NCBI GenBank assembly: GCA_002713365.1
Contig: PASR01000004.1
Location: 1-64,000 of the forward strand
Direction of reading: 5' to 3'
Origin: Rhodospirillaceae bacterium
Lineage (GTDB): Bacteria; Pseudomonadota; Alphaproteobacteria; UBA6615
DNA length: 64,000 nucleotides
Part shown: piece after piece, positions 39,012 to 64,000 of the stretch
Layout: every line of letters begins with the position of its first letter
Position numbering within the stretch: position 1 is the stretch's first letter
Position numbers and translations under genes: made by a program
The notes under the pieces: generated by a model
Told to the model about the DNA's origin: nothing
The model's database searches: none
Seen by the model: the letters and a program-made list of their open reading frames with translations, nothing else

Positions 39012-39797
39012 TTATTGACTAGCTTCTGAATCCATTCGCTTTTGCATTTCCTCCACAGGAATTGGTTGGTTTTTAAATCGACCATGTTTTGCGTAATAAG
39101 CGTCTACTTTGATATGTTTAGAGACCGTAAGCGGGGCTGCCTTGAAAAAATCGTATAAAGCTACAAACCCGCCGGTCCACATAGTTCGGATCATATGAGG
39201 CATAGCACGAGAAGCCCGTAATTCTGCAGTGGGCGCATTTTCTACTTTATGCAAGTTTTCTCGGTCTTCAAGAGCTTTAGTAATTAAGTGAGGAGCCGCC
39301 CAATTGCATCGATAATGGATTGTTCCATCGGGACGGATTATATATACGACGTTGGGCATCGCTCCGTAAGCACGATGGAAATCACCTTCTAAGTTATCAA
39401 CTAAAATTTGTCGAAACTCTCCGTATCGGGGAGCAATTTTACGTGCCGCCTTCAATTTATCATCCATCGATTTATGAGGTCCCAGTCTTTCGCCAGGGTG
39501 GGCCTCTCTAACATAAACAGTTATAAATTCAACATCGGGGAACCCTGATACAACGTCCTTCATAGTTTTGATGTTCTTCGTATACATTGAACAAGTTGAA
39601 GACGCGGTCTCAATAACCAACCATTTTCCAGTAAAATCAGATATCTTAACCTCCTTACCGCTATCTAAGTCGGTTAATGCAAAATCTTTAAATTGTTCTC
39701 CTGCTGCCGGCCCTATAAACATGTCAAAGTTATAATCGACGACCCGAAAACGAGAGTTATTATAAACCATGGGTTGTGTTTGTTCTGTCATTTTCAA
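39012..39797 (-). CDS. deiodinase-like thioredoxin-fold protein (redoxin family)
   Basis: Thioredoxin-fold protein of 261 residues. The strand after GKWLVIETASSTCSMYTKNI carries a single active-site cysteine (C69) where iodothyronine deiodinases have selenocysteine. The downstream block FITVYVREAHPGE is close to the deiodinase family signature (VYIxEAHPxDG), so PF00837-type assignment is favoured over peroxiredoxin. A C-terminal extension of about 75 residues is not part of the fold. Bacterial members have no known substrate; reductive dehalogenation or thiol redox control are both possible. Convergent with the cupin gene. Confidence 0.75.
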   Translation of the reverse strand: MKMTEQTQPMVYNNSRFRVVDYNFDMFIGPAAGEQFKDFALTDLDSGKEVKISDFTGKWLVIETASSTCSMYTKNIKTMKDVVSGFPDVEFITVYVREAHPGERLGPHKSMDDKLKAARKIAPRYGEFRQILVDNLEGDFHRAYGAMPNVVYIIRPDGTIHYRCNWAAPHLITKALEDRENLHKVENAPTAELRASRAMPHMIRTMWTGGFVALYDFFKAAPLTVSKHIKVDAYYAKHGRFKNQPIPVEEMQKRMDSEASQ

Positions 39798-53380: not shown

Positions 53381-54601
53381 CTACAGTTTATTTCGTTCTT
53401 CGACTAAGGCTCTGTCAGCTGCGAGAGAATCAATCTCTGCATCGCTAAACCCATGTTCTGCAAGTATTGATCGAGCATGCTCGCTAAATTTAGGGGGGGG
53501 TGAATTGATTGAACCAGGTGTACGGGAAAATTTAATTGGAATGCCCGTTCCTTTGTACCAGTCAAGTTCAGCCGCCATATTACGATGTATAGAATGCGGA
53601 TGATTCATTACTTGTTCAGTATTATGTACAGGGCCGGCGGGAATTCCGGCTAATAAAAGACGTTTACACAAATCTTCCCCGTTAACATTTTTCATGAGTT
53701 CAGATAGCTCATCTCGAAGATCGCTTATGTTAGCAAGTCGATCAGGGTTGTTTAAAAAACGAGAATCTTTTGATAACTCCGGATTTCCTAGTTCTTTGCA
53801 AAGTTTGCGGAAAGCGGGGTTGTTTCCGGCAGCAACAAAAATATCAACCGTTTTAGTACTTAGTTTATCATAGGGTGCCAGATTAGAGTGTTGGTTCCCG
53901 GTTATTTCTGGGACCTTTCCCCCAGATAAATAATAGTTCGAAACGTGTGGGTGCATAAGTGCAATTGCACAGTCATACAGTGTCATGTCAATGTACTGGC
54001 CCTGATTTGATTTTTCACGCTCTAATAGGGCCATTAATATTGCTACGCAGGTGTATAAGCCGGTTCCCATGTCAACAGCTGCAATTCCGACACGTGTGGG
54101 ATCTTTGTCTTTACCACCATTCACCGACATCCAGCCTGCCATTGCTTGAATAATCGCGTCGTAACCAGGAAACCCGCCCATAGGGCCATCACTTCCAAAA
54201 CCAGAAATACGACAATGAATTAAATTCGGGAACTTTTTTGAGATTACATCATTATAGCCTAGTCCCCACTTTTCCATTGTACCGGGTTTATAGTTTTCAA
54301 GTAGAACATCAGCCTCTTCTAAAAGGCGCAATAATACATCTCTACCTTTTTGAGTACTTAGGTCTAAGCCGATAGACTTTTTATTTCGGTTTAGACCAAT
54401 AAAATATGAAGCATCCCCCTCGTGGAAAGGGGGGCCCCAGTCACGTGTTTCATCCCCTTGAGGTGGTTCCACTTTAATTACTAAAGCACCATGATCTCCA
54501 AGTATCTGAGTGCAATAAGGCCCGCCTAAAACTCGAGCGAGATCGACAACCTTAATTCCTGCCATTGCCCCGGCGGAGTATTGTTTTTCATTATGAGACA
54601 T
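53381..54601 (-). CDS. CaiB/BaiF family (class III) CoA-transferase
   Basis: Protein of 406 residues, normal for the family. DLARVLGGPYCTQILGDHGALVIKVE and the FIGLNRNKKSIGLDL segment open it; the nucleophilic aspartate is D177 in AAVDMGTGLY. The transferase would move CoA between organic acids such as an aromatic acid and succinyl-CoA. It converges on the MarR gene and is near the aromatic operon, so it could be the activating enzyme there. Confidence 0.9.
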   Translation of the reverse strand: MSHNEKQYSAGAMAGIKVVDLARVLGGPYCTQILGDHGALVIKVEPPQGDETRDWGPPFHEGDASYFIGLNRNKKSIGLDLSTQKGRDVLLRLLEEADVLLENYKPGTMEKWGLGYNDVISKKFPNLIHCRISGFGSDGPMGGFPGYDAIIQAMAGWMSVNGGKDKDPTRVGIAAVDMGTGLYTCVAILMALLEREKSNQGQYIDMTLYDCAIALMHPHVSNYYLSGGKVPEITGNQHSNLAPYDKLSTKTVDIFVAAGNNPAFRKLCKELGNPELSKDSRFLNNPDRLANISDLRDELSELMKNVNGEDLCKRLLLAGIPAGPVHNTEQVMNHPHSIHRNMAAELDWYKGTGIPIKFSRTPGSINSPPPKFSEHARSILAEHGFSDAEIDSLAADRALVEERNKL

Positions 54602-54691
54602 ACGACTATATTCTTTATTAGTCTAAAGAGTTAATAAAAATTTGAGATTTATCTATTTTTTTAATCTAAATAAAGCTTTAAACCAAAATAG

Positions 54692-55078
54692 TTAACCGGC
54701 AAGCTTCTTCTTAAGCTCTTCTGCGTTAGGGGCTAAGTTATAGTCTTGGCTTAATTCGCCGTCACCAACCGGATGTTTTGCTGTAAAGAAACGGGCAGGA
54801 CCGCCAACCGCTCTTACTGTATGTGCTGTATTGCGAGGTATGTGTATTAACTCACCTGGTCCGATGTTTTTTACTTCTTCTCCTAATACCATGCGCAATT
54901 CTCCTTCTAAAACAAGAACAAACTGTTCTTCGTTAGGATGAAAATGTGGTGGTGGTCCAATCTCATCTTCATAGGTCATTACCCCTACTTTCATGAATTC
55001 TCCTACAACTGTTGCTGCCATTCCTGGCGCTGTTTTATCCATTTTTGTTTTCATGTCATTTATATTGAAAAAAGGCAT
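54692..55078 (-). CDS. cupin domain protein
   Basis: Single-cupin protein of 128 residues with a complete metal site: PPHFHPNEEQFVLVLEGELRM-type motif 1 (two His and a Glu, about residues 40-60) and IPRNTAHTVRAVG motif 2 with the fourth ligand. This suggests a mononuclear metal protein such as a small dioxygenase, isomerase or decarboxylase helper. The catalytic role is not evident. It sits between the two CoA-transferase loci on the same strand. Confidence 0.85.
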   Translation of the reverse strand: MPFFNINDMKTKMDKTAPGMAATVVGEFMKVGVMTYEDEIGPPPHFHPNEEQFVLVLEGELRMVLGEEVKNIGPGELIHIPRNTAHTVRAVGGPARFFTAKHPVGDGELSQDYNLAPNAEELKKKLAG

Positions 55079-55183
55079 CTAAAACTCCCTAAAATTTTGT
55101 TGTTAGAGTTGGTTATTAGTATTTTTATTTAATTTTATCCAAGTAATTATTATTGATTAAGCTTGATATCAGTTCGTTATTTG

Positions 55184-55915
55184 TTAATTAGCAAAAACAC
55201 GCTCGGCAAAAGCCGGATAGGTTTCGGAAACTTCGTCTGCAACTAGTCCCCTAATTAATTCAATTGTAGCCGCACTCGGTTTCGGGGTTTGCGGTATATT
55301 TATTGGTTTTTCATAAGTGAATCCAGTCATTTCATCTACTTCTTCAATAGTATGACCAGGATGTAATGATTTTAAGAAAAATGAACCTAATTTTTTGTTA
55401 AATATAAAAACACATCTACCAGTAACCAGGGCATAAGGGCCTCCAGGTCTGTAGATGTTTTCAGCGCTAATCCCAGGCGCGCTAATAAAATCAACTTTTG
55501 GTACTAATACTCTTGGTGTATGCTCTTCTCTAAAAAGAATAACCCTAGGAACCAAGAAATATAAATATGCTGACCCAAAAGATCCGGGAAAACGAGCTTT
55601 ACTGCGCGGGTATTCACCAATCCCAACTAAATTAATATTTGCTCTACCGTCAATTTGTCCACCCCCAAGAAAAAAAGCATCAATTCGACCTTGTGCAGCA
55701 CAGTCAAATAGTTCTGTGCCGCCATTGGTAAATGCATTATGCTCTTCACTACCCAACATTGAAACGCGTAGCTTTCCTTTGCTTTTTGCACGCGCAAGCA
55801 GTGCTGCGCTTCCGGGGATAGGTGAAGAAGCACCGATAGCTACATGGCTTAGACCTTCAAGCATGTCGGCAATTGTGGAAATTATTAACTCTTCTGGCTT
55901 AAATTGGATATTCAT
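55184..55915 (-). CDS. CoA-transferase, beta subunit (glutaconate/IpdB-like)
   Basis: Protein of 243 residues related to GctB and IpdB. MLEGLSHVAIGASSPIPGSAALLARA near the N terminus, MLGSEEHNAFTNGG where family I enzymes carry the catalytic glutamate (here E followed by EH rather than NG), and FFLGGGQIDGRANINLVGIG. Whether it is a true transferase or a hydrolase of a ring-derived CoA ester, as shown for the mycobacterial IpdAB, is open. Its ATG overlaps the alpha subunit by four bases. Confidence 0.85.
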   Translation of the reverse strand: MNIQFKPEELIISTIADMLEGLSHVAIGASSPIPGSAALLARAKSKGKLRVSMLGSEEHNAFTNGGTELFDCAAQGRIDAFFLGGGQIDGRANINLVGIGEYPRSKARFPGSFGSAYLYFLVPRVILFREEHTPRVLVPKVDFISAPGISAENIYRPGGPYALVTGRCVFIFNKKLGSFFLKSLHPGHTIEEVDEMTGFTYEKPINIPQTPKPSAATIELIRGLVADEVSETYPAFAERVFAN

Positions 55916-56736
55916 TCTTTAATTTCTTTATCCAGTACATATTGTGATAGGTAGTTTTGGAAACCATCCTCAGTCCTTGCCATTTCTATGTATAGCCTTA
56001 AATGCGTATCATCGGCTGGATATGTGCCAAATAAACCAACTGGCCAAGCGCCATTCTTAGCCAAAGCTAGAGCACTGATATACAAACTTGAAATTGTTCC
56101 CGCTGCCATATTGGTGTCATTTAATAAATTACCCTCATATAGGTTTTCGTAAGTTACAAGTGTGGTTTTCGATGCGTGGGCCATAACCATCATTTCACGA
56201 CGGACCCCTATCCATACATTCCCTTCCCTATCAGCCAGTGGTGCATGAATTAATGTAACGTCCGGGGCAATAGCTTTTACCATTACCAAAGGACTATCTT
56301 CTTTATCAAAAGGGTTATTTCCTATTATCCAGTCTTCACGTTTTTTAAGTAAATCAGATCCAATGATACCTCTGACAGGCATATAAGGTATTCCTTTTTC
56401 TGCGGCCTGAAGTCCTGCATGTATTGCGGGGCACGTACCATCAATAATATTGACCGCTCCCTTTTTAATGGCATCAGTGAATCTAGGTGCTAGCCCATAC
56501 TCGCCAATGGTTACAGCTGCTGTTTCTACAGTAGATACACAACCAGAGCCAATTAACATATCACCTTGAAACCCTATAGATGGCACGCCCACCAGGTGAA
56601 GGTCACGTACTTTATGGTTTATTAAATAGCGCACTGCTTTCATCGCGCAACCGCTATAGTCAGGAGCCAGTGCCAGTTTATTTCCACTATCAATAAGTTC
56701 AATAAGAGTATTTATATTATCAAGGTGTAGTGACAC
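55912..56736 (-). CDS. CoA-transferase, alpha subunit (glutaconate/IpdA-like)
   Basis: Alpha subunit of 274 residues. It shows HLVGVPSIGFQGDMLIGSGCVSTVE, the GLQAAEKGIPYMPVRGIIGSDLLKK region typical of GctA/IpdA (about residues 109-134), and HAPLADREGNVWIG. Partners with the overlapping beta subunit. Divergent from the acyl-CoA dehydrogenase gene by 89 bases, so the two units could share a control region. Confidence 0.87.
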   Translation of the reverse strand: MSLHLDNINTLIELIDSGNKLALAPDYSGCAMKAVRYLINHKVRDLHLVGVPSIGFQGDMLIGSGCVSTVETAAVTIGEYGLAPRFTDAIKKGAVNIIDGTCPAIHAGLQAAEKGIPYMPVRGIIGSDLLKKREDWIIGNNPFDKEDSPLVMVKAIAPDVTLIHAPLADREGNVWIGVRREMMVMAHASKTTLVTYENLYEGNLLNDTNMAAGTISSLYISALALAKNGAWPVGLFGTYPADDTHLRLYIEMARTEDGFQNYLSQYVLDKEIKE

Positions 56737-56825: not shown

Positions 56826-58016
56826 ATGAATTTTGACCTACCTCATGAAATTCAATCTATTATTGAGACTACTAGGCATTTCGCTAAGGTTGAAATTGTA
56901 CCAAAAATAAATGCGTTTGAAGACTCAAGGGAGTTTCCATATACATTAATACAGAAAATGGGTGAGGCAGGTTTTTTTGGGGCCGCTTTTCCTGAAGAGC
57001 TTGGCGGTACAAATGCTGGTTTTCTAGCCATAGCGGCTATTTCTGAAGAATTATCACGTCTTTCACCTGAATTTGGCTACGCTATGAATATGCAGGCGAT
57101 GACATGTCCATTTACAATTTATAATTGGGGTACGGAAGAGCAAATCTCACGTTATGTACCGGATCTAATCTCTGGTAAAAAAATAGGAATGTTTGCTCTT
57201 TCTGAATCTGGTGGTGGCTCAGATGCAGCCGGAGCTATGCAAACCAAGGCTATGCGAGATGGGGATGTGTACAGGTTAAATGGTTCAAAGCAGTGGATAA
57301 CTTTTGCTGATGTGTGTGATACAGGTATTTTATTTGCAAAAACTGATTCAAGTGCAGGTTATCGTGGCATAACGGCGTTTATAGTTGAGCCTAAAATTTA
57401 TCAAGGTTTTACAGCTAAACCTATTTCAATGTCTGGCTTATCTAATGTATTATGTTCAAATTCAGTTTATTTAGATGATTTTGTTGTGCCTGTTAAGAAT
57501 CGTATAGGTAATGAAGGAGAAGGCTTTAAGATTGCTATGAATGCTCTTGAATATGGCCGACTTACTGTATCTGCACGCTCGGTGGGGTTAGCGCAGGCTT
57601 GTTTTGAGCATTCAATAAGCTACGCTAACGAGCGTATAATTAGAGGAAAACCCATAGGTCACTACCAGATGATCCAACATCTTATCGCCGACATGGCTGT
57701 AAATATAGATGCAGCTCGTTTATTAGTTGAACGCACTGGATCCTTCATGGATCAAGGAAAAAAATCGTCTCGTGCCACCTCTAGAGCAAAGTATGTTGCT
57801 GTTAATGCAGCTAAGCATGCTGCAGCTTCAGCAGCAGAGATATTTGCCGGTTATGCTTTGGCCGATGAATACCCTATCAAGAAATTTACAGCTTATGTAA
57901 ATATGCTAGCGGTAGGCGAGGGCACCCCAAATGTTCAACGCGTTTTAATTGCAGAAGATGCACTTGGTATAAAGGATGCGAATAGGCATCCAATCCGCAA
58001 TCGACTGCGCAAATAG
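56826..58016 (+). CDS. acyl-CoA dehydrogenase
   Basis: FAD enzyme of 396 residues that introduces a 2,3-double bond into an acyl-CoA. GKKIGMFALSESGGGSDAAGAMQTKA binds FAD/substrate, QWITFADVCD follows, then the NEGEGFKIAMNALEYGRL block, and the catalytic-base region AVGEGTPNVQRVLIAEDAL (Glu in GEGTP). Total length and motif order match short/medium-chain or aryl-succinyl-CoA type enzymes; chain length cannot be told. AAAGGAG precedes the ATG, and the molybdenum hydroxylase gene starts 9 bases after its stop. Confidence 0.93.
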   Translation: MNFDLPHEIQSIIETTRHFAKVEIVPKINAFEDSREFPYTLIQKMGEAGFFGAAFPEELGGTNAGFLAIAAISEELSRLSPEFGYAMNMQAMTCPFTIYNWGTEEQISRYVPDLISGKKIGMFALSESGGGSDAAGAMQTKAMRDGDVYRLNGSKQWITFADVCDTGILFAKTDSSAGYRGITAFIVEPKIYQGFTAKPISMSGLSNVLCSNSVYLDDFVVPVKNRIGNEGEGFKIAMNALEYGRLTVSARSVGLAQACFEHSISYANERIIRGKPIGHYQMIQHLIADMAVNIDAARLLVERTGSFMDQGKKSSRATSRAKYVAVNAAKHAAASAAEIFAGYALADEYPIKKFTAYVNMLAVGEGTPNVQRVLIAEDALGIKDANRHPIRNRLRK

Positions 58017-58025
58017 GAGATACTC

Positions 58026-60419
58026 ATGACTGAAGAAAATTTATCAGCAACTGATATTAGTGTTTTGGGAAGGCCTAACTCTTACATAGGTCGCAGTGTT
58101 CCGCGCCCTAATGCGCGGCGACTTCTTTCAGGTCAGGGTCAATTTGTAGACGATTTAAAGTTACCTCGTATGCTTCATGTGGCATTTGTACGTTCTCCAT
58201 ATGCTAACGCAAGTATTACGAATATTGATTGTAGTGCAGCACAGTCCAGTTCTGGAGTAGTAAAAATAGTTGATGGAAAAGAACTAAAAGAATTCTGTGC
58301 TCCTTGGGTTGGTATTTTAACGCACTTTAAGGGTTTAAAATCACCCCCTCAACATGCAATCGCTGTTGAACGTGTTTGCTGGCAAGGAGAAGCGGTAGCT
58401 GCGGTTATTGCTGAAAGTCGTGCAGAGGCCGAGGATGCAGTAGCGCTAGTAGATGTTACTTACGAAGAATTTCCGGCAGTTGTTGATCCTGAAACAGCTA
58501 TTGATTCCACCAGCCATGTGATACATCCCGAAATGGGTGATAATATTGCTTTTAAAAATGCAGTTGAAGCTGGAGACGTCGATGCTGCCTTTGCAGAAGC
58601 TGAGTTAGTGGTTGAAGAAACATTCCAGTTTGAACGCCATACTGGAGTTACTTTAGAGCCAAGGGTTATACTATCTGACTATAGTGAAACAGAAGACTTA
58701 TTAACTGTTAATATGTCTTTTCAAGCACCTCACATGATGCAACATATTTTCGCAGCCCATATTGGAGTGCCTGAAGGCAATGTTAGGGTTATATGTAAGG
58801 ACGTTGGCGGGTCGTTTGGGATAAAAGTACATGTCTACGCCGATGAAATGGCTACTGTTGCTATATCAAAGATGATGTGTCGACCAGTAAAATTCACTGC
58901 AGATAGGCTTGAGTCTTTTGTAACAGATATACATGCAAGACATCATAGAGTTCATGGACGAATGGCATTCTCCTCTCAGGGGGAAATACTTGGTATTGAA
59001 ATTGACGCCCTAACAGGCATCGGCCCTTACTCAATGTATCCAAGGACGAGTGCGATGGAAGCAAATCAAGTGATAAATTTTACTGGATGAACTTATAAAC
59101 ATAAAAACTATAGAGCTAAAACTACGGTTGTTTTTCAAAATAAAAACGTGATGTGTCAGTACCGTGCGGTAGGTCATCCAATTGCTTTCGCTGTCACGGA
59201 AGGGCTTCTGGAAAAAGGTGCCAGAAAACTTGGAATAGACTCTTTAGATATACGACGCATTAACTTCATTCCCGATGATGCTTATCCGACTAAAGGAGCT
59301 AGTGGAATTATATTTGAATCATTATCACATCAGAAATCACTAGAAAAATTAATGTCTATGATTGATTACGAATCTATAAAAACTGAAAGAGATACCCTTA
59401 GGAAAGATGGTGTATATAGGGGTATTGGATTCGCTTCTATGATTGAACTGACTAACCCTGGGCCAATGATGTATGGTATTGGTGGGGCCCATATTTCATC
59501 ACAGGATGGAGCTCAGGTGCGTTTGGACTCTGCTGGATCAATTATTGTTCATACAAGCATAACAGAGCAAGGCCAAGGCACCGATACGATCATTGCACAA
59601 ATTGCTGCAACAGCTTTCGGAACTTCAATAGATAAAGTACGTGTTGTTACCGGTGATACTGATAACGTACCGACAGGTGGAGGTACTTGGGGGTCTAGGG
59701 GAGCTGGTATTGGGGGAGAGGCGGTGCTTTTGGCTGCAAAGCAGCTGCGAACTAATGTTGTGGAGTTGGCAGGTGAATTATTACAGGCTGATGCCACATC
59801 ATTGGATATAGTCGATAGCGTAATTGTTGATAAAAAGACCGGTACAGAGCGTATGCCTTTAACTGAGGTAGCTTTTATTGGTTATTTTCGTTCGGATTTA
59901 ATACCTAAAACCTTTCAACCGGAACTTATGGCAACTAAACATTATTTGCCGAGGGAATATAATATAGCCTTTACTAACGGTATTCAGGCTTCTTATGTAG
60001 AGGTTGATCCTGAGACTGGTCTTGTAAAGTTATTAAACCATTGGGTAGTAGAAGACTGTGGGACAGTTATAAATCCATTGTTAGTTGATGAACAAGTTCG
60101 TGGAGGAGTTATCCAAGGACTTGGGGGCGCCTTAATGGAAGAATGTGTCTATGATAATGCCGGTAATATGACAAATGCTAATATGGCAGACTATCTAGTT
60201 CCAATGGCCAATGAGATGCCGGATATTGAGGTGGGTCACATAGAAACCCCTACTATGGATTCAGAACTAGGTGCTAAGGGAGCGGGAGAAGCGGGAACTG
60301 CAGGAGCACCAGCTGCGGTAATGAATGCTATTAATGATGCTTTAAGCCCATTTGATGTAAGGATTAACCACCAGCCGATAACACCACAAAGAATTCTTAA
60401 GGCATTAGATAAATACTAA
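58026..60419 (+). pseudogene. xanthine dehydrogenase family molybdenum-binding subunit, interrupted by in-frame TGA
   Basis: One frame of 798 codons is broken by a single TGA at 59088-59090 (codon 355). Both halves are in the same frame and together give the normal length of a CoxL/XdhB-type large subunit. N-terminal GRSVPRPNARRLLSGQGQFVDDL and later QGQGTDTIIAQIA with the catalytic Glu E755 in GAKGAGEAGT are intact. The active-site loop is CQYRAVGHP, unlike the AYRCSFR of true CO dehydrogenase and off the usual AYRGAGRP. The TGA aligns with the conserved Gly of GxYK, so GGA to TGA is the simplest cause. No iron-sulfur or FAD subunit gene is adjacent. Confidence 0.8.
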
Positions 60420-60505: not shown

Positions 60506-61198
60506 ATGTCTACAGTTGAAATTGTAAGTTCAAGTACTTGTCCTTTTGCTCAGCGCACTCGTATGGCTCTTCTAGAAAAAAATATTAGTTTTGATTTAGT
60601 TGAGATTGATCTTGATAATAAGCCGAGATGGTTTTTAAAAATATCTCCATATGGTAAAGTTCCGATCTTACGTCACAATGATAAAGTAATATTTGAATCT
60701 TCTGTTATAAATGAATATTTGGAAGATGTATTTCCTCAAAAACATTTATTGCCTGACGATCCAGCAGCTAAGGCACAGGCAAGAATCTGGATTGATTTTG
60801 CAAATGTTCGGTTTATTCCTCATGTTTATAAGCTGATGTTGGCGCAAGACTTAGTAAGACAAAAGATCCATAAGAAAAAATTAATAGATGCCCTACTAAT
60901 GATTGAACATGAAGGACTGGGGAAACTATCAGATGGACCATATTGGCTAGGTGAAAAGGTTAGTCTTGTGGATTTAAGTTTCTTGCCTCATTTGCAAAGA
61001 TTATGTGTTTTGAAACATTATAGGGATTTTGAAATCCCCGAAGAATGTATTTTGCTTAAATCCTGGTTACAGCTTATGCATCAACGACTATCTGTTCAGT
61101 CTATGTTGACCAGCGAGAAGACACTTATAGATAATTGGGCAAAATACGCTTTTAATACTAGTACTGGGACGACGGCTTCAGATATGCGTGAGGTATAA
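60506..61198 (+). CDS. glutathione S-transferase family protein
   Basis: Protein of 230 residues with an N-terminal thioredoxin-like domain beginning VEIVSSSTCPFAQRTRMALLEKN. The Cys at C12 in CPFAQR is typical of omega/lambda-like and reductive dehalogenase-type GSTs, which form mixed disulfides rather than conjugates. SPYGKVPIL and FESSVINEYLEDVFP supply the glutathione site; an all-helical C-terminal domain follows. Placed 138 bases before the selenoprotein gene on the same strand, it may act on the same substrate. Confidence 0.9.
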   Translation: MSTVEIVSSSTCPFAQRTRMALLEKNISFDLVEIDLDNKPRWFLKISPYGKVPILRHNDKVIFESSVINEYLEDVFPQKHLLPDDPAAKAQARIWIDFANVRFIPHVYKLMLAQDLVRQKIHKKKLIDALLMIEHEGLGKLSDGPYWLGEKVSLVDLSFLPHLQRLCVLKHYRDFEIPEECILLKSWLQLMHQRLSVQSMLTSEKTLIDNWAKYAFNTSTGTTASDMREV

Positions 61199-61336: not shown

Positions 61337-62569
61337 ATGGTACACGTACATGAAATGCCGGAACATCTGGCCAAAGCGCTGATAAACCAGGAGTTGCCAA
61401 CTTATGATACCACACCTTGGGTAGAAGCAATAACGTTAGAAGATAGTAAAATTGCTATAATTAGCACAGCTGGCTTACATCGAAGCGAAGATGCTCCTTT
61501 TGTTCCTGGCGCAGGAGACTATCGGGTAATTCCAGATGATGAGGATATGGCTAATCTTATGATGAGTCATCTCTCAACTAATTTTGACCGTACCGGGTTT
61601 TTTCAAGATGTTAATACAGCTTTTCCTATTGATAGGTTACACGAGCTAAATGAAATGGGTGTTATAGGGTCGGTTGCATCACGACATTACTCATTCATGG
61701 GTGCCACACCTCCCCATATGATGGAACCAGTTGCTAAGGATCTAGCAGAGTTACTAAAGCAGGATGGGGTTACTGCTGTCATTCTTGTCCCGGTCTGACC
61801 TCAATGTACGCGCGCCGTGGGCGGGCTAGCACATGTTCTAGAAGGCGAAGGTATTGCAACTACGCATATTAGTTTAATTCGTGAACATACTGAGCGAATG
61901 AAACCACCGCGAGCATTAGCTGTTAAGTTTGAGTTAGGTCGTCCGTTTGGTGCTCCAAATCAATCTGATTTTCAACGTAGAGTCTTGCATGAGTGTCTTG
62001 GGATACTAGAGTATGAAGAGGGCCCAGTTATTCAAGATTTTCCTGATCTTCCTCCTGGTAACGAAAGTGATGAATTACAAGGATGGGCATGCCCGGTAAA
62101 CTTTGCGGCACCTATGGAAGACATCAGTGATGCAGATTTAGTCTATCAGTCTCTCTCTCAAGAAGTTAATCTATTAAGACCCTGGCATGATGAAGCGGTA
62201 AAGAATTTTAATCGCTCAGCTTTCGGTATTTCCGGTAAGACAACTGACGAGATAGTTAGATTTATTGCAGATCTTTTAGTTGCACCTGAAAAGCAGAAGC
62301 CGCCTATAATAGGAGAGACACTTGGAATTGGCTTTAAACGCATGGCAGATGATCTTCGCTATTTTTATACTGAGGCAGCTATAGCCCGACCAGACCAAAA
62401 GACAAGCGATCTTGAGGTTGCTAATTGGTTATGGGGCGAAACCACTCTTGGTAAAGTGCTCGTGGCTATACGTGACTACTCAATGGAAAGTGATGACCCA
62501 TCTTTAAAAACTATGGCAGTCACGGCCATGGTTCCATCTCATCAACGCTACAGAACCAAGCATGGCTAG
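61337..62569 (+). CDS. GrdB/PrdB-like selenoprotein (UGA at codon 154 read as selenocysteine)
   Basis: A single frame of 411 codons with one internal TGA at 61796-61798. Reading it as Sec gives a 410-residue protein with VILVPV-Sec-PQCTRAVGGLAHVL, so the residue is the first position of a UxxC motif (U154, C157), exactly where glycine reductase GrdB and proline reductase PrdB have selenocysteine. The N-terminal half has ISTAGLHRSEDAPFVPG, DYRVIPDD, FPIDRLHEL and YSFMGATPPH, all strong marks of PF07355 proteins. A GC-rich hairpin follows the TGA. The C-terminal 180 residues are longer than in PrdB. The substrate is unknown; reductive cleavage of a C-N or C-S bond is a family-based guess. Confidence 0.88.
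61799..61833 (+). promoter_or_regulatory. bacterial SECIS-like hairpin
   Basis: Directly after the TGA, GCGCGCC (61810-61816) pairs with GGCGGGC (61820-61826) with one G-G mismatch, closing on the loop GTG (61817-61819). An outer TGT/ACA (61805-61807, 61831-61833) can extend it. The loop is 19-21 bases from the TGA and begins with G-U, as required by bacterial SECIS elements bound by SelB. In such AT-rich DNA a stem of six G-C pairs stands out. Confidence 0.75.
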
Positions 62570-62638: not shown

Positions 62639-63877
62639 ATGTCTTTATTTTTTAAGCCATCAATTATAGTTCGGCGTAATTTAGTGCTAGTTGCTTCATT
62701 ATTGTTCCTGTTAGTGGGGACTGGTAGTATTTACTTTATCGTAGTTGCCATGAAGCAGATTTCTAATGATTTTCTATGGCCAAGGTCAGTACCATCAATT
62801 GCTTATGCGCTTCAATATTTTGGAGCAGGAACCGGCGGAATTTTTATGGGCTGGTGTTTGGATAGGCGAGGAATGGAAATACCAGCTCTAACCGGGGCTA
62901 TCATGATAGGGTTGGGCACTATTTTAACTAGTATGGTTACTACTCAGTGGGAGTTATACCTAATTTACGGAGTTATGCTTGGCTTTTTTGGTAGGTCAAC
63001 GCTTTTTGCTCCTTTAACAGCTAATATTACTCGCTGGTTTGAGCATAATAAAAGCCTTGCGGTAGGTGTTGTTGGATCAGGACAGGGTCTTGCTGGCATG
63101 GTATGGCCTCAGACATTCCATTATTTAATCAATGCATATGGATGGCGACAAACAGCACTTATTTACGGTGTTTTTTCGTTAGTTACCATGCTTCCGTTGG
63201 CGTTTATTCTAAAACAAAAGCCACCTAAAACTGTTTCTTCAAATTCATCCGAAAATATAATTTTAAGGCCTACGTCAAAGGTTCATCAATATATATCACC
63301 GCGAATGATTCAGGTCTCATTATCGATTGCCTCAATTGGTTGCTGTGTGGCTATGTCCCTACCTCTAGCGCATATAGTTAGTCATGTCAGCGACCTTGGT
63401 TTTGATCCAGCACGAGGTGCTGAGGTGCTTTCTATCATGTTAGCTAGTTCTGCGGTTGCTAGTTTTTTTGGTGTTGGTTTTCTTGGGAAAAGATACGGAG
63501 GTCTTGGAGCCTTAATTATTTTTTCATCTGGCCAGGCAACTTTGTTAGCGACTCTGGCTTTTGTTGATAGTCTAATGGGGGTTTACATTGCTTCCGCTTT
63601 ATTTGGACTTGGTTACGGCGGAATTTTGCCCTGCTATCCATTGATTGTTCGGGAGCTACTTCCTGAAGCTGAGGCTGGTAGGCGTACTGGCATTATTTTA
63701 TTGTGTGCGGGTATTGGTATGGCTATCGGTTCTTGGTTAGGAGGCTATATGTTTGATTTGACAGGGACTTATCAGCTAGCTTTTTTAATTGGTGTTGTTT
63801 TTAATATTGGTAACCTTGTTATTATTATTAGTTTGTTATTACGTACACATAAACTGAATGTAACTTTAGCTAGATGA
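62639..63877 (+). CDS. MFS transporter (oxalate/formate antiporter-like)
   Basis: Integral membrane protein of 412 residues with twelve predicted helices. The first half has GWCLDRRGMEIPALTGA as the MFS loop 2-3 motif (D-R-x-G), GVVGSGQGLAGMVWPQTFHYLINAYGWRQTALIYG resembles the OFA group, and the second half has LLCAGIGMAIGSWLGGYMFDLTGTYQLAF. Family members exchange organic acids. It follows the selenoprotein gene by 69 bases and may import its substrate. A short AT-rich tail with the palindrome CTAGTACTAG (63962-63971) follows to the window end. Confidence 0.9.
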   Translation: MSLFFKPSIIVRRNLVLVASLLFLLVGTGSIYFIVVAMKQISNDFLWPRSVPSIAYALQYFGAGTGGIFMGWCLDRRGMEIPALTGAIMIGLGTILTSMVTTQWELYLIYGVMLGFFGRSTLFAPLTANITRWFEHNKSLAVGVVGSGQGLAGMVWPQTFHYLINAYGWRQTALIYGVFSLVTMLPLAFILKQKPPKTVSSNSSENIILRPTSKVHQYISPRMIQVSLSIASIGCCVAMSLPLAHIVSHVSDLGFDPARGAEVLSIMLASSAVASFFGVGFLGKRYGGLGALIIFSSGQATLLATLAFVDSLMGVYIASALFGLGYGGILPCYPLIVRELLPEAEAGRRTGIILLCAGIGMAIGSWLGGYMFDLTGTYQLAFLIGVVFNIGNLVIIISLLLRTHKLNVTLAR

Positions 63878-64000
63878 TAGTAGTTTTTTTATGAAGGTAA
63901 TTTGGTTAAATTTTTTTAGACTTTAATATGTATTGTAAATAATTAAATAAAATTTACTAGACTAGTACTAGCACTATTATTGGAAACAGAGCCTATTATA

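What the first reader, a model, noticed from the sequence alone, without database searches (positions are those of the whole stretch)
61337..62569. Selenoprotein of the GrdB/PrdB type hidden as two short reading frames
The TGA at 61796-61798 lies in a continuous frame between 153- and 256-codon halves. It is the first residue of a UxxC motif at the position of the catalytic Sec in glycine and proline reductases. Automatic annotation would give two truncated proteins. In an aerobic-looking alphaproteobacterium without the other reductase subunits nearby, the role of this protein is not described.
Basis: partly seen in the sequence, partly recalled or inferred. Interest (0 to 1): 0.85.

Follow-up and report, generated by a model that had tools for sequence, protein, structure and literature searches.

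The report
Orphan two-domain PrdB-like ocean selenoprotein
A gene that looks broken in two by a stop codon is really one enzyme in which UGA is read as the rare amino acid selenocysteine; it resembles half of an anaerobic amino-acid-splitting enzyme, but occurs alone, with an extra domain, in an apparently oxygen-respiring marine bacterium, and what it does is unknown.

Summary
Window 61337-62569 (+) is one 410-residue frame with a single in-frame TGA (61796-61798) that starts a UPQC motif. Counting the window, 73 distinct copies carry TGA at this site; copies from three genomes carry TGC/TGT; no other codon was seen. The codons just downstream are frozen at third positions, which fits a bacterial SECIS hairpin. 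selA, selB, selD and tRNA-Sec lie within 13 kb. tRNA-Sec is detected in 38 of 42 genomes with the TGA form and in none of three with the Cys form. Selenocysteine is close to certain, though not shown experimentally.

The N-terminal half is GrdB/PrdB-like (PF07355 met; PrdB and GrdB equivalog cut-offs missed). It is not a member of either enzyme: the pyruvoyl partner family (PF09338) is absent from the complete genome, and a conserved C-terminal helical domain is added. PrdB-like selenoproteins are already known as abundant in ocean metagenomes, labelled proline reductase. The two-domain orphan form, its Sec/Cys split, its context and the missing partner are what this report adds.

Best guess at function: a self-contained, thiol-driven selenol reductase that cleaves an activated C-X bond, or a peroxidase-like oxidoreductase. 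Substrate unknown.

The parts
61337..62569 (+). Two-domain PrdB/GrdB-like selenoprotein, 410 residues with UGA154 read as Sec
61796..61798 (+). In-frame TGA read as selenocysteine 154, first residue of UxxC (UPQC, residues 154-157)
   Evidence: 73 distinct copies TGA, 3 genomes TGC/TGT, none other
61805..61831 (+). Predicted bacterial SECIS hairpin; core stem 61810-61826, apical loop GUG 61817-61819
   Evidence: RNAalifold consensus and frozen third codon positions; this single sequence alone is not unusually stable
61430..62056 (+). N-terminal Rossmann-like PrdB/GrdB-like domain (about residues 32-240)
   Evidence: TIGR04483 113 bits over residues 32-225; PF07355 36 bits; AlphaFold2 model and VIA-align
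62057..62566 (+). Linker with conserved Cys252 (42 of 43) and C-terminal mostly helical domain of unknown family
   Evidence: not found apart from this protein in 240 alphaproteobacterial genomes
60506..61198 (+). Glutathione S-transferase-family gene, conserved upstream neighbour
   Evidence: a GST also lies directly upstream in gammaproteobacterial loci L117 and L133
58026..60419 (+). Molybdenum hydroxylase (CoxL/XDH-like) large subunit, conserved neighbour; interrupted here by TGA 59088-59090 where relatives have Gly
56826..58016 (+). Acyl-CoA dehydrogenase, conserved neighbour
53381..56736 (-). CoA-transferase III (53381-54601), cupin (54692-55078), CoA-transferase subunits (55184-55915, 55912-56736); conserved block next door
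62639..63877 (+). MFS transporter directly downstream; not seen at the homologous loci
63943..64000 (-). 3' end of the Ndh-SelD fusion gene (contig C2:63943-66165); selenophosphate synthetase, Cys form; tRNA-Sec, selB and selA follow at C2:66203-66295, 71370-73298 and 73295-74695

Best explanation
Core claim (the confidence given is for this): window 61337-62569 is one gene for a 410-residue selenoprotein. Sec154 is inserted at UGA with the help of a SECIS hairpin within the next 35 bases, by SelA/SelB/SelD and tRNA-Sec encoded next door. It belongs to a distinct two-domain family that is related to the Sec subunit of D-proline and glycine reductases but occurs without the pyruvoyl subunit. 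Inferred mechanism (my estimate 0.35): Sec154 sits at the N-terminus of a helix after a beta strand, and as a selenolate it attacks an activated carbon-heteroatom bond of a small organic substrate held with the help of the added helical domain. The Se-C adduct is resolved by Cys157 (perhaps with Cys252) to a selenenylsulfide and reset by a thiol donor such as glutathione or thioredoxin. This would do without the amine-specific pyruvoyl Schiff base of PrdA/GrdE. Shown: frame, codon conservation, RNA-level constraint, machinery, absence of the partner. Inferred: nucleophile role, substrate class, thiol donor, role of the added domain.
For: Site: 73 distinct TGA copies against TGC/TGT in three genomes, none other. 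ORF: one TGA and no other stop in 40 of 44 long matches, two of the rest being Cys forms. RNA constraint: third-base conservation over codons 158-163 is 0.92, against 0.50 +/- 0.06 (maximum 0.72) in the rest of the gene; the third bases of codons 162 and 163 stay C and G (73/73 and 72/73) although the residue changes Gly/Ser/Cys and Gly/Ala/Val; the free third positions (161, 164) fall in unpaired places. Machinery. tRNA-Sec over cut-off in 38 of 42 Sec-form genomes and 0 of 3 Cys-form genomes (Fisher p about 0.0025, not corrected for phylogeny). Partner absent: PF09338 in none of 6 same-family genomes, while the same search rings in 2 of 13 other genomes that have the gene. Other TGA frames at known Sec sites in the genome: peroxiredoxin-type TPGU and UPYC, AhpD-type CxxU. 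Structure: model pLDDT 89, pTM 0.88, strand 147-151 then helix 155-170. Invariant residues around the site. Chemical precedent: GrdB-type FarB/FarE, proposed from transcriptomics for C-F cleavage of fluoroacetate (PMC10838667); Se-C adduct chemistry (PMC10298544).
Against: The SECIS hairpin of this one sequence is no more stable than shuffles (z 0.52), and compensatory changes are few. Four Sec-form genomes show no tRNA-Sec over cut-off; they may be incomplete. For the mechanism there is no direct evidence: neighbours differ between lineages (GST and Mo hydroxylase; selD; CoA-transferase III; 2OG or TauD oxygenases; cupin), and no solved structure matches clearly.
Confidence: 0.95

Rival explanations
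1. It is a real selenoprotein but works as a thiol/selenol oxidoreductase or peroxidase (UxxC redox pair reducing peroxides or disulfides), with no C-X cleavage.
For: UxxC at a helix N-terminus is the usual redox layout. Other likely selenoproteins of this genome are peroxiredoxin- and AhpD-like. In one lineage a gene that looks AhpD-like by eye is the close upstream neighbour (no Pfam match for the copy tested); in two others a GST is.
Against: Relatives of the domain (GrdB, PrdB) cleave C-N bonds. A strongly conserved block away from the UxxC (M76 S77 H78 S80 T81 N82 F83 D84, H117) suggests a specific substrate pocket.
Confidence: 0.35
2. It is a true D-proline or glycine reductase subunit whose partner was missed.
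For: TIGR04483 PrdB 113 bits over nearly the whole model; ocean relatives were named PrdB in PMC1088965 and PMC2398784.
Against: Score far below the cut-off of 300; PF09338 partner absent in a complete genome and five same-family genomes, with positives elsewhere; extra C-terminal domain; host with a haem-copper oxidase gene.
Confidence: 0.03
3. The TGA is a nonsense mutation or sequencing error in a pseudogene, or the two halves are separate genes.
For: A neighbouring gene in this very window carries such a TGA, at a site where relatives have Gly.
Against: The same TGA in 73 distinct copies across Alpha-, Gamma-, Deltaproteobacteria, Nitrospinota and Chloroflexi MAGs, nearly all otherwise open; Cys in genomes without a detected tRNA-Sec; frozen codons downstream.
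Confidence: 0.01
4. UGA is read through as another amino acid by suppression, without selenium.
For: Nothing specific.
Against: Complete Sec machinery next door, Sec/Cys swap that follows tRNA-Sec presence, SECIS-type constraint; four other TGA codons in the genome at known Sec sites.
Confidence: 0.01

Closest known systems
PrdB, Sec subunit of D-proline reductase (TIGR04483)
   Same: N-terminal 200 residues align over nearly the whole PrdB profile; Sec in UxxC
   Different: Below the equivalog cut-off; about 170 extra C-terminal residues; no PrdA in the genome; host with an oxidase gene; different neighbours
GrdB / GrdF / GrdH, Sec subunit of glycine, sarcosine, betaine reductases (PF07355, TIGR01918)
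   Same: PF07355 matched by all 43 members scanned; UxxC
   Different: Lacks the N-terminal half of GrdB (match starts at profile position 207); below TIGR01918 cut-off; no GrdE partner
'Proline reductase PrdB' of the Sargasso Sea and GOS selenoproteomes (PMC1088965, PMC2398784)
   Same: Marine, UxxC, PF07355 (GOS), abundant, many Sec forms and some Cys forms
   Different: Environmental reads that were given the function of D-proline reductase; whether they are this two-domain form could not be checked here
FarB/FarE, GrdB-like system proposed for reductive cleavage of fluoroacetate (PMC10838667)
   Same: GrdB-type selenoprotein put to a non-amino-acid substrate; an MFS transporter gene close by in both
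   Different: FarB is paired with a GrdE-like subunit and lacks conserved CxxC residues; anaerobe
Ndh-SelD fusion of aquatic bacteria (PMC2398784)
   Same: The selD next to the gene is this known fusion with a Cys active site
   Different: Part of the machinery, not of the enzyme

Membership tests
Bacterial selenoprotein (Sec at UGA) | In-frame UGA conserved in relatives, with Cys in Sec-free relatives | tested here: met
   73 TGA, 3 genomes TGC/TGT; Cys-form genomes have no tRNA-Sec over cut-off
Bacterial selenoprotein (Sec at UGA) | SelA, SelB, SelD and tRNA-Sec in the genome | tested here: met
   all over curated cut-offs
Bacterial selenoprotein (Sec at UGA) | SECIS hairpin just downstream of UGA | tested here: met
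   codon freeze and RNAalifold consensus; few compensatory changes, single-sequence z 0.52
Bacterial selenoprotein (Sec at UGA) | Selenium in the purified protein | not testable with these tools
   needs 75Se labelling or mass spectrometry
PrdB (TIGR04483 equivalog) | Score over curated cut-off 300 | tested here: not met
   113.4 bits
PrdB (TIGR04483 equivalog) | PrdA pyruvoyl partner in the genome | tested here: not met
   PF09338 absent, rings in 2 other genomes; TIGR04480 absent but its controls were silent
PrdB (TIGR04483 equivalog) | Single domain of about 240 residues | tested here: not met
   410 residues, conserved extra domain
GrdB (PF07355 / TIGR01918) | PF07355 gathering score 22 | tested here: met
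   36.1 bits; all 43 members scanned match at E <= 0.1
GrdB (PF07355 / TIGR01918) | TIGR01918 cut-off 65 and TIGR01917 cut-off 602 | tested here: not met
   40.1 and 36.6 bits
GrdB (PF07355 / TIGR01918) | GrdE (PF09338) partner | tested here: not met
D-proline or glycine reductase activity | Thiol-dependent reductive C-N cleavage | not testable with these tools
   needs an assay

The most novel reading that the evidence does not exclude
A self-contained selenoenzyme family that has turned the GrdB/PrdB selenol chemistry from anaerobic amino-acid fermentation to thiol-driven cleavage of some other organic substrate in oxic marine bacteria, with a new C-terminal domain and no pyruvoyl subunit. 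The PrdB label in ocean selenoproteomes would then be functionally wrong for this form.
Probability: 0.3. Interest if true: 0.7.

Novelty: new variant of a known kind. Interest (0 to 1): 0.45.

Why it matters
PrdB-like proteins are among the most abundant selenoproteins counted in ocean metagenomes and carry the label of an anaerobic proline-splitting enzyme. Here a whole genome shows that such a protein can exist without the partner subunit that proline reductase needs, in a bacterium with a haem-copper oxidase gene, with an extra conserved domain. If the C-X cleavage idea is right, selenium-dependent reductive chemistry thought of as anaerobic would run in oxic seawater. In practice, annotation that reads TGA as stop splits the gene in two, so its distribution is likely to be under-recorded.

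Tried and rejected
Proline or glycine reductase membership: rejected on cut-offs and missing partner. Nonsense mutation or sequencing error: rejected. A second selenoprotein at 58026-60419: rejected, since 11 relatives have Gly (GGC/GGT/GGG) at the TGA site and there is no Cys motif. Phage origin: no PHROGs match. No PDB sequence relative with the family profile. Finding the C-terminal domain apart from this protein: none seen in 240 alphaproteobacterial genomes; the matches lie in frames of about the size expected downstream of the UGA or in Cys-form ORFs. The TIGR04480 search alone was uninformative because no control rang. Promoter and terminator scans near the gene were at the level of shuffles.

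Full report
Observation. Window 61337-62569 on the + strand is one open frame of 410 residues apart from a single TGA at 61796-61798, codon 154, followed by P-Q-C. Ordinary ORF calling returns 153 and 250 residues. A GGGGA stretch lies just upstream of the ATG, and family members begin with the same M-V-type start.

Selenocysteine. The window lies in a 2.52 Mb genome (G000, contig C2:1-64000). tRNA-Sec is at C2:66203-66295 with 67.8 bits against a cut-off of 47. selB and selA are at C2:71370-73298 and 73295-74695, and a selD fused to an NADH-dehydrogenase-like domain at C2:63943-66165. All pass their curated cut-offs (SelA 600/268, SelB 473/242, SelD 292/125 bits). In the same family of genomes, the copies that cover the site carry the TGA at the same codon. 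In named genomes, 65 loci were found in Alpha-, Gamma- and Deltaproteobacteria, Nitrospinota and Chloroflexi MAGs. Over these and 13 further loci from other alphaproteobacterial families, 73 distinct copies (window included) have TGA; those from three genomes have TGC or TGT, and no other codon occurs. tRNA-Sec over cut-off was found in 38 of 42 genome handles with the Sec form and in none of the three genomes with the Cys form (Fisher p about 0.0025, not corrected for phylogeny; G089 and G283 look like the same genome).

SECIS. RNAalifold places a stem at +14 to +30 nucleotides from the U of UGA, with an apical GUN loop at +21 to +23 in most single folds. Third codon positions of codons 158-163 are conserved at 0.92 on average, against 0.50 +/- 0.06 in other six-codon windows, maximum 0.72; the window starting at 158 ranks first of 398. 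Codons 162 and 163 keep C and G at the third base even though their residues change. The free third positions, 161 and 164, are loop or unpaired. The Cys forms do not keep the pattern throughout. Caveats: the hairpin of the window's own sequence is not more stable than shuffles, and compensatory changes are few.

Family and architecture. PF07355 (GRDB) is met at 36 bits; TIGR04483 (PrdB) scores 113 bits over residues 32-225, below its cut-off of 300; TIGR01918 is also below cut-off. All 43 members of alignment A2 match PF07355 and nothing else convincingly. Invariant over 43 members: R63, M76-H78, S80-D84, H117, M121, G122, U/C154, P155, C157, T158; Cys252 in 42 of 43. The AlphaFold2 model (pLDDT 89.4, pTM 0.88) has a Rossmann-like N-terminal domain in which Sec154 lies between strand 147-151 and helix 155-170, and a helical C-terminal part from residue 266. 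No PDB relative was found by sequence or at E <= 0.001 by Foldseek. VIA-align Z 8.8 (rmsd 3.0, 133 residues) to a LacI-type chain is within the range of common arrangements. The C-terminal domain was not seen apart from this protein in 240 alphaproteobacterial genomes.

Missing partner. In D-proline reductase, and in glycine reductase where it has been processed in vitro, the pyruvoyl group sits on PrdA or GrdE (PF09338; PMC10838667, PMC10298544). PF09338 is absent from the complete own genome and from five same-family genomes, and from 11 of 13 other genomes that have this gene; it rings in two of those, which shows that the search works. The host has a haem-copper oxidase gene.

Context. In the own family the gene follows a GST and one or two molybdenum hydroxylase large subunits, with acyl-CoA dehydrogenase and CoA-transferases beyond, and the SelD fusion lies close by in most loci (17 of 21). 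In two gammaproteobacterial loci a GST lies 20-32 bases upstream. Elsewhere the neighbours are selD (L095, L097, L102), CoA-transferase III with a 2-hydroxyacid dehydrogenase (L123, L174), 2OG-Fe(II) oxygenases (L102, L107, L177), TauD dioxygenases next to two Cys forms (L128, L167), or a cupin (L095) (some named by eye). The shared theme is breakdown of small organic compounds and thiol chemistry, but no single pathway is fixed.

Mechanism. Shown: a UxxC frame with a GrdB/PrdB-type domain, no pyruvoyl partner, an added domain. Inferred: Sec154 as nucleophile, Cys157 as resolving thiol, Cys252 as possible third redox residue, a thiol donor such as glutathione (GST neighbour). GrdB-type proteins have been proposed to cleave C-F bonds in fluoroacetate (PMC10838667), so the chemistry may extend beyond amines. 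I give 0.35 to C-X cleavage and 0.35 to a peroxidase or disulfide-reductase role.

Known or new. PrdB-like UxxC selenoproteins were counted 42 times in the Sargasso Sea and 235 times in GOS (PMC1088965, PMC2398784) and labelled proline reductase. So a marine PrdB-like selenoprotein is known. I did not find the two-domain orphan form, the Sec/Cys distribution against tRNA-Sec, the codon-level SECIS constraint or the missing partner described in the papers searched, but only an open-licence library was searched. Whether the GOS reads are this form was not tested.

Noticed in passing
58026-60419 (+), TGA at 59088-59090: Molybdenum hydroxylase large subunit with an in-frame TGA; 11 relatives have Gly (GGC, GGT or GGG) there, so this looks like a nonsense mutation or assembly error, not Sec.
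   Followed up: yes
G000 C5:18706-19068, C16:61591-61956, C14:381-641, C1:16-156 (L151-L154): Other likely selenoproteins of this genome: peroxiredoxin TPGU, Prx-like UPYC and two AhpD-like CxxU frames, so the host has at least five candidate selenoprotein genes.
   Followed up: partly
L079, L085, L096; same-family pairs L018/L033 and L015/L034: Tandem duplicates of the selenoprotein gene, both copies with TGA (for example L015 and L034, 67% and 61% identical to the window protein); possible division of labour.
   Followed up: no
39012-39797 (-): Deiodinase-like/AhpC-type protein (PF00837 46 bits) without an in-frame TGA, in the same window.
   Followed up: no
L128:9154-10125 and L167:5164-6012: TauD-type dioxygenase directly next to the Cys form in two genomes; may point to the substrate.
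   Followed up: partly
L029, L030, L038: Shorter PrdB-like frames with TGA at a UPxD or UPVC site in other alphaproteobacteria, seemingly a separate subfamily without the C-terminal domain.
   Followed up: no
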